56,308 nt of DNA. Origin: an uncultured Caryophanales bacterium (GTDB lineage: Bacteria; Bacillota_I; Bacilli_A; RFN20; CAG-449). Below, piece after piece: positions 26,717 to 30,562 of the stretch (the stretch's first letter is position 1; each line of letters begins with the position of its first letter). A program made the position numbers and the translations under genes. Under the pieces are notes generated by a model, which saw nothing but the letters and a program-made list of their open reading frames with translations, did no database searches and had not been told where the DNA came from. The DNA lies in NCBI GenBank assembly GCA_945873815.1, contig CAMCEE010000012.1, positions 1 to 56,308 of the forward strand, read 5' to 3'.

Positions 26717-26747
26717 ACTCGTTATATAAGTGGTAACGAGTTTTTTT
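26717..26747 (+). terminator. Terminator of tRNA-Glu
   Basis: ACTCGTTA pairs with TAACGAGT across a 9-nt loop, then seven T. It lies 14 nt after the tRNA and just upstream of the Fic-fusion promoter. Confidence 0.85.
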
Positions 26748-26767
26748 ATTCAGTTGTACTCAATTTG

Positions 26768-26804
26768 TGGACAACTGAAAAGACTATGTTATAATTTAAG
26801 TATG
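26768..26804 (+). promoter_or_regulatory. Promoter giving a leaderless Fic-fusion mRNA
   Basis: TGGACA (26768-26773), 16-nt spacer, TATAAT (26790-26795), then only six bases to the ATG at 26802. Transcription normally starts about seven bases after the -10, so the message should begin at or beside the start codon, with no ribosome site. Confidence 0.65.
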
Positions 26805-27653
26805 AATAAACTGTCTGTTCGTTATTTTATTGGTAAAAAAGTTAGGGCAATTTGGAATGAAAAATATTCTAAATGGTTTTTTTCTGCTACTGATATTGTT
26901 TCAATCTTGGCAGAAACCGATAATTCAAGACGTTATTGGAATGTAATAAAAAGCAGAAATGAAATGCTTAAGGAATTGACTACTCAAGATAAGTTATATG
27001 CTGAAGATGGAAAAAAATATTTAACTGACGTTCTCGATGAAAATGGTATTAAATTAATGGCTCTAACAATACCATCAAAGAATAGGGAAAACTTGATTAA
27101 TTGGTTATCTGGCGCAATGGATCCACTTGATGAACAAAGTAAAAGAAGAGCGTATGAATTATTCGATTCTGATATTATCGATGATAATGATATAGGTAAA
27201 ACTAAATCATTAATTCAAATTCATTCGTTTCTTTTTGGCGGATTATATGAATTTGCTGGGAAAATTAGGACTAGAACAATTTCTAAAGGTGGTTTTACAT
27301 TTGCAAACGGAGATTTTTTACCATCTGTATTAGAATCAATAGATAATATGCCAGATCGTACGTTTGATGAGATTATTGAAAAATATGTTGAGATGAATAT
27401 TGCCCATCCATTTATGGAAGGTAATGGGCGTTCTACAAGAATATGGCTAGATTTATTAATTAAGCAAAGATTAGGCAAATGTATAGATTGGTCTAAAATT
27501 GAAAAAGTTGATTATTTAAATGCAATGAGAGAAAGTCCATATTCATCTCATTTGATTCATGATTTATTAAAATCCTCTTTAGTTTCAAATATTGATAGTA
27601 GAGAGATTTTTATGAAGGGAATTGATTATTCTTATTATTATGAAGAAGAGTGA
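26802..27653 (+). CDS. BRO-N-like domain fused to a Fic domain
   Basis: 283 aa. Residues 1-110 resemble the BRO-N/antirepressor DNA-binding fold (RAIWNEKYSKWFFSATDIVSIL...NSRRYW). Residues 135-283 are a Fic domain: IHSFLFGGLYEFAGKIRT and the complete motif HPFMEGNGR (202-210), whose Glu in place of Asp is common in this subgroup. No (S/T)xxxE(G/N) inhibitory motif is obvious. The start at 26802 rather than 26730 is chosen because a TATAAT box lies just upstream. It sits between tRNA-Glu and a recombinase relic, so it is probably acquired. AMPylation target unknown. Confidence 0.85.
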   Translation: MNKLSVRYFIGKKVRAIWNEKYSKWFFSATDIVSILAETDNSRRYWNVIKSRNEMLKELTTQDKLYAEDGKKYLTDVLDENGIKLMALTIPSKNRENLINWLSGAMDPLDEQSKRRAYELFDSDIIDDNDIGKTKSLIQIHSFLFGGLYEFAGKIRTRTISKGGFTFANGDFLPSVLESIDNMPDRTFDEIIEKYVEMNIAHPFMEGNGRSTRIWLDLLIKQRLGKCIDWSKIEKVDYLNAMRESPYSSHLIHDLLKSSLVSNIDSREIFMKGIDYSYYYEEE

Positions 27654-27774: not shown

Positions 27775-27978
27775 ACGCCTTGATATAGGGGTTAAAATCC
27801 CGGAATTGATAGTTGAATGAACCATATTAACACAAAATCCTGAACTGCTAGGCAAAATTGATGTTTAAACCTTCAAAAATTTATTAATTTTTATAAAACT
27901 TCTCAAAAACGAAAGGTGCTTCTAAAAAACGATAGGGGGTATTAAAAAAATGAAAGGTATTATTTGAGAAAATAATGA

Positions 27979-28182: not shown

Positions 28183-28397
28183 AATCAGTTGTAAGGGCTG
28201 ATTTTATTGTTTCTACTGCGTATACAAATTATCGCTTTTATGGTAAAATATTAAAAATTATTTAAATGAAAATAATTGGTCTTGAAGTGAAATAAATTAG
28301 AATTTGAGGAGACTAACTATTAAGAAAATCAATACTTTAAAAGAAAAAAATTAGAAGCACGACAAAAAGAACTTTATTTAAGTTAATTAATAAAAAA

Positions 28398-29570
28398 TTA
28401 TCTTAATAAGTTAGAATTAAACATTAGATTATCTTTCTCAAGCTTAAAGATAACTCTAATTAATTTCTTAACAACATGTGATAAGGCTACAAGATGGCAT
28501 TTACCTTCTGATCGTTTCTTTCTATAGAATTCATAGAATGTTGGATTATGAGCGATAACAGTCATAGCAACATTAAAAAGAACGTATCGTAAATGTCCTG
28601 ATCCATGCTTAACCATATGACCATTGTGATCCTCTGTTCCGGATTGATTTCTAGAAGGATCCACACCACAGAAGGCGGTTAATTGATTTGGATTATCAAA
28701 TCTAGTAATGTCTTCAAACTCACCAATTAAACTTCCGGCACTAAGTGAGGAAATTCCTGGAATAGATGCTATAGGAGATTTATATTGGCTCATAATCTCA
28801 TTAATTTGAGATTCTAAAACAGATACTTCTTCATCTAAAGATTTATAGATGTTAAGTATAGAGTGAAGTAAAGAAACATTGTATTTTGTTTCATTACCAA
28901 TAGTATTCTTAGCAAGTTCCTTAAGTTTAATTATCTTACTTGCTGGAATCTTACGAGAATAGTTATGAATTATTTCAATATCATGATTATTCAATTTAGC
29001 TATCCTAGAAGGTGAATTAAACTTATCTAAGATAAATAAAGCAGTGTTTGATAGCTTATTATTAAAGAACTGCTTATACTCAGGAAATATCTTATCTAAG
29101 ATATTTGTTAGATGAACAAGCTGTAAAGAGCGTTGTTTAATCATCGATTCACGTTCTCTAGTTAAAGATTTTAACTCTTGAATGTGATAAGATGAAAAGC
29201 GATAGGGCTTGTATTCAATTCTTGCATCTGTAAGAATCGTTGCAATAAGAGAAGCATCGCATTTATCTGTCTTAGTACGACGTAGTGAATGTGAAGAAGC
29301 AAATCGCTTAATCAATAAAGGGTTAAATTCCATAAAGGAATAACCATTGTCATTAAGGAAGAGCTTGAGATTGTTTCCATAATGACCAGTTGCTTCAAGC
29401 CCTATCTTGATTTCTTGGGAACGATCAAGAGACTTGAGCACATCAAGAAAGGTGTTAAAACCTTCTTGAGAATTGTCAAACGAGAAGGAGCCTCGAATGA
29501 CCTGATTGTTTTCATTCATAATAAAACAATCATGCTTGTACTTAGAAATGTCAATTCCGATAAAGTACAT
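28398..29570 (-). CDS. IS110-family transposase
   Basis: 390 aa, apparently intact. The N-terminal RuvC-like DEDD domain shows MYFIGIDISKYKHD (first Asp), GLEATGHYG (Glu) and KTDKCDA (Asp pair). The C-terminal Tnp_20 domain shows IPGISSLSAGSLIGEF and DPSRNQSGT, which holds the catalytic serine region. The start at 29570, not 29612, follows from GGAGG 9 nt upstream and the canonical first residues. IS110 enzymes recombine DNA guided by a bridge RNA from their non-coding end. A candidate hairpin lies just upstream. Confidence 0.95.
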   Translation of the reverse strand: MYFIGIDISKYKHDCFIMNENNQVIRGSFSFDNSQEGFNTFLDVLKSLDRSQEIKIGLEATGHYGNNLKLFLNDNGYSFMEFNPLLIKRFASSHSLRRTKTDKCDASLIATILTDARIEYKPYRFSSYHIQELKSLTRERESMIKQRSLQLVHLTNILDKIFPEYKQFFNNKLSNTALFILDKFNSPSRIAKLNNHDIEIIHNYSRKIPASKIIKLKELAKNTIGNETKYNVSLLHSILNIYKSLDEEVSVLESQINEIMSQYKSPIASIPGISSLSAGSLIGEFEDITRFDNPNQLTAFCGVDPSRNQSGTEDHNGHMVKHGSGHLRYVLFNVAMTVIAHNPTFYEFYRKKRSEGKCHLVALSHVVKKLIRVIFKLEKDNLMFNSNLLR

Positions 29571-29608
29571 AAAAAATACCTCCAAATATTTGACACATTG
29601 TGATTGGC

Positions 29609-29694
29609 CCACAGGTTTTATTAAGGAAGTCTTACGTGAAATGAAACATCAAAGTGTTATCTAACTGATTATCCCTTATTAAATAAAACTGTGG
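29609..29694 (-). ncRNA. Candidate IS110 bridge RNA hairpin
   Basis: On the transposase strand, CCACAGTTTTATTTAATAAGG (29694-29674) pairs with CCTTAATAAAACCTGTGG (29626-29609), a stem of about 17 bp with small defects. It encloses a loop of about 47 nt that could hold target- and donor-binding bases. It lies 39 nt before the transposase start, where IS110-group bridge RNAs are encoded. Family knowledge plus fold; no expression evidence. Confidence 0.5.
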
Positions 29695-29755
29695 TTGGTG
29701 TCTTCTAAAAACAGTCAAAGCTGTAAAGATATAAAAACAAATCCACAGTGTCAAT

Positions 29756-29789
29756 TTTATTGTAACACCTGGCCAGGTGTTACAATAAA
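29756..29789. repeat. 34-bp perfect palindrome
   Basis: TTTATTGTAACACCTGG followed by its exact reverse complement, with no loop. It is unusually GC-rich in the centre for this genome. It lies between the IS110 leader and the acetyltransferase gene. It could be an operator for a dimeric regulator, a bidirectional terminator, or a target-site structure for the IS. Confidence 0.75.
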
Positions 29790-29856
29790 TAGTTCTCAAA
29801 GAAGGGAGATTAATAAGTAATCCAATCTCTGATTATTTATTAATATAAGAAAAATT

Positions 29857-30414
29857 ATGATTATCAAAGACATCGAATATAAACTCAAGGATGGAAGGAA
29901 TGCGTTGATTCGTAGTCCGCAGGATGAAGATATTCAAGGGATGTTAGAGTATCTCTATATTTCAGCAGGTGAAACGGACTTCATTATACGCTATCCTGAG
30001 GAGTGCAACAAATATACAGTAGAAGGCGAAAAGGCATTGTTTGATAGAATAAACAAAGCTGACAACGAAGCTATGCTCGTATGTTTGGTTGAGGGAAAAG
30101 TTGCTGGAAATTGCCAAATTACATGGAACAAAGGAATAAAAACAAGACATCGAGCAAGTGTTGCAATCGCATTATTAAAAGAATATTGGAATCAAGGTAT
30201 TGGAACAAGACTGTTCCAAGAGCTAATCCGTATTGCAGAGGAAAACCCGAACTTAATTCAAATCGAACTTGAATTTGTAGAGGGAAATAGCCGTGCACGA
30301 GCTTTGTATGAAAAAATGGGATTCAGAATCACAGGCGTCAAACCCAATGCAATTCGCTTGAAAGATGGAACACTACTAAATGAGTATTCTATGATTCGAG
30401 AAATCAAGCGATAA
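29857..30414 (+). CDS. GNAT-family N-acetyltransferase
   Basis: 185 aa. The acetyl-CoA loop is clear in EYWNQGIGTRLFQELI (about residues 108-123), followed by IELEFVEGNSRARALYEKMGF, the usual end of the fold. Acceptor unknown; RimJ/RimL-like or small-molecule acetylation are both possible. Base use is less AT-rich than its neighbours and it abuts the IS110 element, so it may be acquired. No clear ribosome site precedes ATG 29857. Confidence 0.9.
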   Translation: MIIKDIEYKLKDGRNALIRSPQDEDIQGMLEYLYISAGETDFIIRYPEECNKYTVEGEKALFDRINKADNEAMLVCLVEGKVAGNCQITWNKGIKTRHRASVAIALLKEYWNQGIGTRLFQELIRIAEENPNLIQIELEFVEGNSRARALYEKMGFRITGVKPNAIRLKDGTLLNEYSMIREIKR

Positions 30415-30562
30415 ATTCCAATTTAACTTGCTGAATTCTATAACAAATCAGGGTGTTTTAAAAAAAGAAAGGGTGTTTATATTAAAATGGTTCATCTTTG
30501 CCAACTTAGTTAAATATGATTGATATTTGTATCAGAATTTTTTTGGTGTTATTTTGTCGTTT

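What the first reader, a model, noticed from the sequence alone, without database searches (positions are those of the whole stretch)
28398..29789. IS110 element with a candidate bridge-RNA hairpin
Just upstream of an intact IS110 transposase a 17-bp stem closes a 47-nt loop, the place and shape expected for a guide (bridge) RNA that selects target and donor DNA. Such an RNA from an AT-rich anaerobe would widen the known set.
Basis: partly seen in the sequence, partly recalled or inferred. Interest (0 to 1): 0.6.

Follow-up and report, generated by a model that had tools for sequence, protein, structure and literature searches.

The report
IS110 element guided to ribosome-binding sites
This is a jumping gene of the IS110 family with a clear guide ("bridge") RNA; in its relatives the guide's target loop spells out a ribosome-binding site and often a start codon, which explains why these elements land just in front of genes.

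Summary
A 1538-bp IS110-family element lies at window 28312-29849 (minus strand), with an intact transposase (28398-29570) and a ~165-nt bridge-RNA region upstream. Single-sequence folding is not above chance, but about 51 relatives are decisive: helices keep pairing through changes on both sides, and guide loops match each element's own ends and flanks better than swapped ones (0/2000). A sister species holds the exact empty site of a related element. The right target guide carries the SD; about half of left guides carry CAT (ATG reversed). The window copy split the SD of a GNAT gene, though its own target guides match that site only partly (RTG 4/6). A known kind of system; the target resembles that published for IS900, and the guide-RNA explanation was not found in the held literature.

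The parts
28312..29849 (-). whole IS110-family element (1538 bp, counted with the LE core)
   Evidence: LE and RE found by alignment of relatives; related truncated copy L011 is identical up to 29850 and then diverges; boundary rule proven by an exact empty site for relative L092
28398..29570 (-). transposase, 390 aa, DEDD RuvC-like + Transposase_20 domains, catalytic-type D/E/DD and SG positions kept
   Evidence: alignment to ISCro4 (9t56), IS621 (8wt6) also matched
29848..29849 (-). left core dinucleotide CT
28310..28311 (-). right core dinucleotide CT; RE ends AATAGTTAGT|CT
28327..28332 (-). -35 half (TTGATT) of the promoter formed when the ends join in the circle
   Evidence: junction TTGATT-17 nt-TATATT; 36/41 relatives score at least 9/12 against 9% of shuffles
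29842..29847 (-). -10 half (TATATT) of the junction promoter
29831..29844 (-). helix A, 5' arm (pairs with 29809-29822)
   Evidence: own -10.6 vs swapped -5.3 kcal/mol, 0/2000; G-U 15 vs A-C 16, so no strand bias
29809..29822 (-). helix A, 3' arm
29826..29833 (-). helix B, 5' arm (pairs with 29795-29802); interleaved with helix A; candidate equivalent of the IS621 5' stem-loop
   Evidence: own -11.65 vs swapped -7.0, 0/2000; G-U 50 vs A-C 22
29795..29802 (-). helix B, 3' arm
29756..29789 (-). perfect 34-bp palindrome spanning an internal -10-like box; different perfect palindromes at the same place in L004/L035/L041
29759..29764 (-). internal -10-like box TACAAT just before the bridge RNA
   Evidence: exact TATAAT in 36/51 relatives at 6-21 nt from the RNA, 4.6% of shuffles
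29590..29754 (-). bridge RNA (inferred extent, about 165 nt), closed by P1 TTGACAC (29748-29754) / GTGTCAA (29590-29596)
   Evidence: P1 own -12.9 vs swapped -9.3, 0/2000; fold of the leader
29689..29748 (-). target-binding loop: stem CTGTGG (29743-29748)/CCACAG (29689-29694), apical hairpin 29711-29724
   Evidence: 97.9% of cells paired over three helices, 98 cells changed on both sides, 0/500
29725..29742 (-). left target guide region
29702..29711 (-). right target guide UUUUUAGAAG (core complement AG at 29702-29703)
   Evidence: single best offset in 36 relatives, 7 nt including the core; in this copy 4 of 6 nt match the flank
29659..29669 (-). left donor guide region (AUCAGUUAGAU; shares AGTTAG with the RE end)
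29630..29636 (-). right donor guide region (CGUAAGA; pairs with the LE start CTTAT)
   Evidence: LE columns 2-6 found paired with it by RNAalifold; offset scan
29579..29583 (-). GGAGG ribosome-binding site of the transposase
   Evidence: nearly invariant in relatives
28300..28311 (+). SD of the interrupted gene: GAATTTGAGG|AG, reading AAAAATTATG when rejoined to the other flank
29857..30414 (+). GNAT acetyltransferase gene whose SD was split off by the insertion (ATG 7 nt from the core)

Best explanation
It is an IS110-type insertion sequence with a canonical bridge RNA encoded upstream of the transposase. Excision joins the right and left ends into a circle and builds a promoter across the core (inferred from sequence). 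The leader is transcribed into a bridge RNA with a target-binding loop and a donor-binding loop. The donor loop pairs with the element's own joined ends; the target loop pairs with the insertion site; the transposase recombines the two at a CT core. In this branch the right target guide carries a Shine-Dalgarno sequence and, in about half of the members, the left target guide carries CAT (the start codon read on the other strand) at the usual spacing. The element therefore inserts inside ribosome-binding sites and parts a gene's SD from its ATG. Shown computationally: fold, guide matches, boundaries and target context. Inferred: transcription, RNA-protein binding, circle formation, activity of this copy.
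For: Transposase family. Stem covariation. RNAalifold, unprompted, pairs the LE start with the donor loop, with exchanges CG:15/UA:11. Own guides against swapped ends and flanks: RTG 6.05 vs 3.62 nt, RDG 4.78 vs 2.73, LTG 5.75 vs 4.67, LDG 7.0 vs 5.8, each 0/2000; one fixed RTG offset stands out, score 12.9 against 3.2 for the next. Natural re-aiming: L069/L092-L094 guide GAGGAG with flank CTCCTC, sister L070 guide AAGGAG with flank CTCCTT. Empty site in G619, 116/119 identical to the joined flanks of L092 with one CT. Seven identical copies in G430, plus one in G619, all follow GGAG and precede an ATG by a few nt. Context: 43/55 vs 4.2%; SD of at least 5 nt 35/41 vs 7.5%. LTG holds CAT in 29/54, shuffled mean 9.3, maximum 18; its position follows the core-ATG spacing (Spearman 0.55, p = 0.002). 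Junction promoter 36/41 vs 9%.
Against: The window's own copy matches its flanks poorly (RTG 4/6; LTG only about 4/10 in the family register), so its guide has drifted or it arrived by a tolerant insertion. LTG and LDG signals are weaker than RTG and RDG. Swap tests keep composition but not relatedness. The SD control is drawn from this window, and the ATG context was scored with thresholds chosen by me. No transcript, binding or transposition data. No empty site was found for the window copy itself.
Confidence: 0.9

Rival explanations
1. The conserved upstream region is a 5' untranslated regulatory RNA or attenuator of the transposase gene, not a guide RNA.
For: It lies directly before the transposase SD; several helices overlap promoter boxes; the outer P1 stem ends close to the SD.
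Against: An attenuator would not covary with the DNA flanking each insertion or with the element's outer ends, at fixed offsets, nor change together with the target in sister elements.
Confidence: 0.04
2. The target preference comes from the transposase protein recognising AG-rich SD DNA; the guide-like matches are inherited coincidence.
For: All elements here are related and nearly all target SD-like DNA, so part of the match is shared.
Against: Own guides beat swapped guides (0/2000); elements with other RTGs have other flanks (L022 TTGTCAA; L064 GGAGATG; L100/L101 AGTGAG); CA-core and TT-core elements carry matching changes in the guide.
Confidence: 0.04
3. IS1111-type element, in which the guide RNA lies downstream of the transposase.
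For: Same transposase superfamily.
Against: The long conserved non-coding region is upstream; the downstream part is short (28312-28397); no subterminal inverted repeats were seen linking the two ends.
Confidence: 0.01
4. The insertion context (between SD and ATG) reflects purifying selection against insertions inside genes, not targeting.
For: Intergenic insertions are tolerated better in general (general knowledge).
Against: Selection would not place the core about 6 nt from the ATG in a fixed orientation, nor prefer splitting an SD; 43/55 vs 4.2%, SD 35/41 vs 7.5%, 8/8 copies of one element.
Confidence: 0.03

Closest known systems
IS621 and its bridge RNA (Durrant et al. 2024 PMC11208160; Hiraizumi et al. 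2024 PMC11208158)
   Same: Upstream RNA with target and donor loops, each as stem, left guide, stem-loop, right guide; CT core shared by both ends; promoter rebuilt across the joined ends; left guides read as the top strand and right guides pair with it; 5' stem-loop with diverse sequence.
   Different: IS621 targets REP sequences; here RTG pairing is longer (7 nt including the core, against 4) and aimed at an SD. The leader here is longer and holds two interleaved helices plus a conserved internal -10 box just before the RNA.
IS900 of Mycobacterium avium subsp. paratuberculosis (PMC8141618)
   Same: IS110 family; published target motif CATGNNNNNNTCTCCTT has the same layout as here (CAT, a spacer, CT, CC), that is, between SD and start codon.
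   Different: Actinobacterial; its guide RNA was not examined here, and the held papers do not tie its target to a guide loop.
ISEc21 / IS1111 seekRNA systems (Siddiquee et al. 2024 PMC11187229)
   Same: NCR-derived guide RNA with short stretches matching both target strands; a longer precursor RNA is reported.
   Different: Different targets; IS1111 members carry the RNA downstream of the gene.
ISCro4 transposase (PDB 9t56)
   Same: Closest solved relative by sequence, E = 6e-20.
   Different: Low overall similarity; other host; its target was not compared.
IS110 elements on Lactobacillales plasmids (NZ_CP117406.1, NZ_CP121168.1, NZ_CP042415.1)
   Same: 34-38% transposase identity, same leader and loop layout by eye, also just upstream of divergent genes.
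   Different: RTGs such as GAAAG, in a slightly different register relative to the SD (read by eye, not tested statistically).

Membership tests
IS110 family insertion sequences (IS110 group) | DEDD RuvC-like domain (PF01548) plus C-terminal Transposase_20 domain (PF02371) with conserved Ser | tested here: met
   D/E/DD and SG positions in the alignment to ISCro4
IS110 family insertion sequences (IS110 group) | long non-coding region upstream of the transposase (downstream in IS1111) | tested here: met
   279 nt upstream (29571-29849) against 86 nt downstream (28312-28397); upstream part conserved
IS110 family insertion sequences (IS110 group) | scarless insertion with one shared core dinucleotide and no further target duplication | tested here: met
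   exact empty site for relative L092 in G619; same core at both ends of most relatives with CT, CA or TT; not directly shown for the window copy
IS110 family insertion sequences (IS110 group) | circular intermediate with junction promoter | tested here: inconclusive
   promoter sequence present across the joined ends, 17-nt spacer, 36/41; the circle itself was not observable
Bridge RNA | two stem-loops with large internal loops, conserved by covariation | tested here: met
Bridge RNA | target loop matches the insertion site (LTG bottom strand, RTG top strand) | tested here: met
   family level: RTG very strong, LTG moderate; window copy only partial (RTG 4/6)
Bridge RNA | donor loop matches the element's own ends (LDG-LD, RDG-RD) | tested here: met
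   RDG strong, LDG weaker because conserved; window copy GUAAG with CTTAT, AGTTAG with RE
Bridge RNA | RNA is expressed and bound by the recombinase | not testable with these tools
   no transcript or binding data
IS900-type SD/ATG-targeting elements | insertion between start codon and SD, motif CAT-spacer-CT-CC | tested here: met
   43/55 context, SD 35/41; window copy GAGG|AG AAAAATT ATG
IS900-type SD/ATG-targeting elements | common descent with IS900 | not tested
   IS900 is not in the collections that could still be searched
IS1111 group | guide RNA downstream and subterminal inverted repeats | tested here: not met

The most novel reading that the evidence does not exclude
A branch of IS110 elements in Bacilli uses its bridge RNA to recognise a generic translation start: the right target guide carries the SD and the left target guide carries the start codon at the usual 6-nt spacing. 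The elements are thus RNA-guided to the start of almost any gene rather than to one repeated sequence. Lineages with CT and CA cores read different registers of the same SD (AAGGAG| and GAGGTG|), which suggests that SD targeting has been kept or regained under selection.
Probability: 0.7. Interest if true: 0.6.

Novelty: new member of a known kind. Interest (0 to 1): 0.45.

Why it matters
It adds an anaerobe branch (Erysipelotrichaceae and other Bacilli) of bridge-RNA elements with full anatomy. It also offers a testable reason for the old observation that IS900-like elements land between SD and ATG: the target loop carries those two motifs. Such guides show how an RNA-guided element can stay non-specific about genes yet exact about position. 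The family holds many naturally re-aimed guide and target pairs that can be used to study bridge recombination in AT-rich hosts.

Tried and rejected
Single-sequence folding as evidence (z = -0.5): rejected, only comparison is informative. Rfam scan: no meaningful hit. DNA search of plasmids and protein-pattern scan of viral contigs: nothing. Second copy in the own genome: none, only the palindrome matching itself. Empty site for the window copy in its own genus: none found; shown instead for relative L092. LTG anchored at the core, as in IS621: weak (65/2000); a right-aligned register over flank positions -3 to -12 fits better. Interleaved helices A and B as one RNA pseudoknot: not adopted, because the junction promoter would start inside arm A and helix A shows no G-U excess; left open.

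Full report
WHAT IS THERE. On the minus strand, window 28398-29570 encodes a 390-aa IS110-family transposase with both family domains and an above-cut-off match to NCBIfam NF033542, "IS110 family RNA-guided transposase". Its closest solved relatives are ISCro4 (9t56) and IS621 (8wt6). Taken alone it folds no better than shuffled sequence (z = -0.50), so the case rests on relatives.

RELATIVES AND ENDS. The own genome (1.8 Mb, 39 contigs) has one copy. Searches of the family, order and class and of public genomes gave more than 50 distinct relatives with full leaders. A truncated relative (L011/L033) is identical up to window 29850 and then diverges. Aligning ends across relatives puts the element at 28312-29849, with CT cores at 29848-29849 and 28310-28311. 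Elements with CT, CA or TT cores mostly carry the same dinucleotide at both ends; a TT-core subgroup (L024-L029) does not show the same dinucleotide at the right end. For relative L092 in G430, a sister species (G619) holds the uninterrupted site: 116/119 identical to the joined flanks, with a single CT. This proves the boundary rule and the scarless insertion for the family, not directly for the window copy.

FOLD. In 26 leaders RNAalifold finds the target-loop stem, its apical hairpin and the donor-loop apical hairpin; 15 of 22 pairs show at least one change on both sides. In 51 leaders those three helices are paired in 97.9% of cells, with 98 cells changed on both sides and 0/500 shuffles as high. 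The inferred RNA spans about 29754 to 29590 (165 nt), close to the 177 nt of IS621 (PMC11208160).

GUIDES. RNAalifold, with no knowledge of guides, paired the first bases of the element with the right side of the donor loop, CG in 15 sequences and UA in 11 at one position: the RDG-RD pairing of bridge RNAs. Own-versus-swapped tests give RTG 6.05 vs 3.62, RDG 4.78 vs 2.73, LTG 5.75 vs 4.67 and LDG 7.0 vs 5.8 matched nt, each 0/2000. An unbiased offset scan finds a single standing-out RTG register of 7 nt including the core (score 12.9, next 3.2) and an RDG register (11.3, next 5.2). The LTG signal is moderate (6.4 in the right-aligned scan, next 3.6; the left-aligned scan gives 4.8) and the LDG signal weak because both partners are conserved. 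Sister or related elements with re-aimed guides have correspondingly changed flanks: GAGGAG with CTCCTC (L069, L092-L094), AAGGAG with CTCCTT (L070), AAAGAAG with CTTCTTT (L047), TTTGGAG with CTCCAAA (L019), TTGTCAA with TTGACAA (L022).

TARGET. The sites are ribosome-binding sites. 43 of 55 insertions lie 2-12 nt before an ATG-led reading frame on the other strand, against 4.2% of random positions and 13.6% of positions after GGAG in this window. The rejoined site contains at least 5 nt of AAGGAGGTGATC in 35 of 41, against 7.5% of random 18-mers. Seven identical copies in G430 and the G619 copy all follow GGAG and precede an ATG. The right target guide usually is an SD sequence. The left target guide contains CAT in 29 of 54 (shuffled mean 9.3, maximum 18 of 500 runs), placed where the start codon falls at the commonest spacing of 6 nt, and its position correlates with actual spacing (Spearman 0.55, p = 0.002; relatedness not removed). 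The published IS900 target CATGNNNNNNTCTCCTT (PMC8141618) has the same layout. A guide-RNA explanation of that preference was not found in the held papers; that is a limited search.

THE WINDOW COPY. Rejoined, its site reads GAATTTGAGG-AG-AAAAATTATG, the SD and start of a GNAT acetyltransferase gene at 29857-30414. Its RTG (UAGAAG) matches GAGGAG in only 4 of 6 positions and its LTG in about 4 of 10 in the family register (read). The identical target loop in L011 matches that copy's left flank over ten bases (TTTTATATCT), though in a register shifted by 2 nt (my alignment). So this copy's guide has either drifted since insertion or tolerated mismatches. Transposase, loops, cores and promoter halves are intact, so activity is plausible but not shown.

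LEADER. A promoter is formed when the ends join: TTGA.. and TATnnT with a 17-nt spacer, 36 of 41 scoring at least 9/12 against 9% of shuffles. An internal TATAAT sits just before the RNA in 36 of 51, against 4.6% of shuffles. Between them lie two interleaved helices, A and B, both kept by pairing (0/2000 each). G-U against A-C counts separate them: known RNA helices 56:10 (donor stem) and 13:1 (target stem), helix B 50:22, helix A 15:16; the outer stem P1 gave 15:13 and does not follow the pattern. I read helix B as the RNA 5' stem-loop known from IS621 (PMC11208158) and helix A as acting without strand preference, perhaps in DNA over the junction -10 box; this is tentative. The perfect 34-bp palindrome at 29756-29789 covers the internal -10 box, and different perfect palindromes sit there in near relatives (L004, L035, L041).

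VERDICT. Ordinary in kind, well supported in detail: an IS110 element with a canonical bridge RNA. What is worth a specialist's attention is the programmed target, a generic translation start. Limits: no expression, binding or transposition data; swap tests do not remove relatedness; the LTG part is the weakest link.

Noticed in passing
window 29756-29789: Perfect 34-bp palindrome with no spacer over the internal -10-like box; L004, L035 and L041 have different perfect palindromes at the same place (compensatory), function unknown.
   Followed up: partly
window 29795-29844 and leaders of relatives: Two interleaved inverted repeats (A, B) of pseudoknot topology, both covarying; helix A shows no G-U excess over A-C while the target and donor stems do, hinting at a DNA-level or two-strand role.
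   Followed up: partly
window 27899-27949 and 30412-30504: Short ~20-nt units (CTTCTAAAAAACGAAAGGTG) on both sides of the element; similar stretches at other places in the own genome (C3) and in G011, G014 and G015 of the genus: a small dispersed intergenic repeat.
   Followed up: partly
window 26730-27653: Protein with a Fic domain and a weak Bro-N match, next to the element.
   Followed up: no
L027:1236-1500: Left end partly duplicated in tandem (the first ~25 nt of LE repeated), as if a second insertion or slippage occurred at the end.
   Followed up: no
L081, leader: Extra palindrome GTGAACTAAGTTCAC between the internal -10 box and the bridge RNA.
   Followed up: no
L024-L029: TT-core subgroup whose right end does not show the same dinucleotide (AAATC, AAATA), suggesting mismatch-tolerant or shifted core use.
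   Followed up: no
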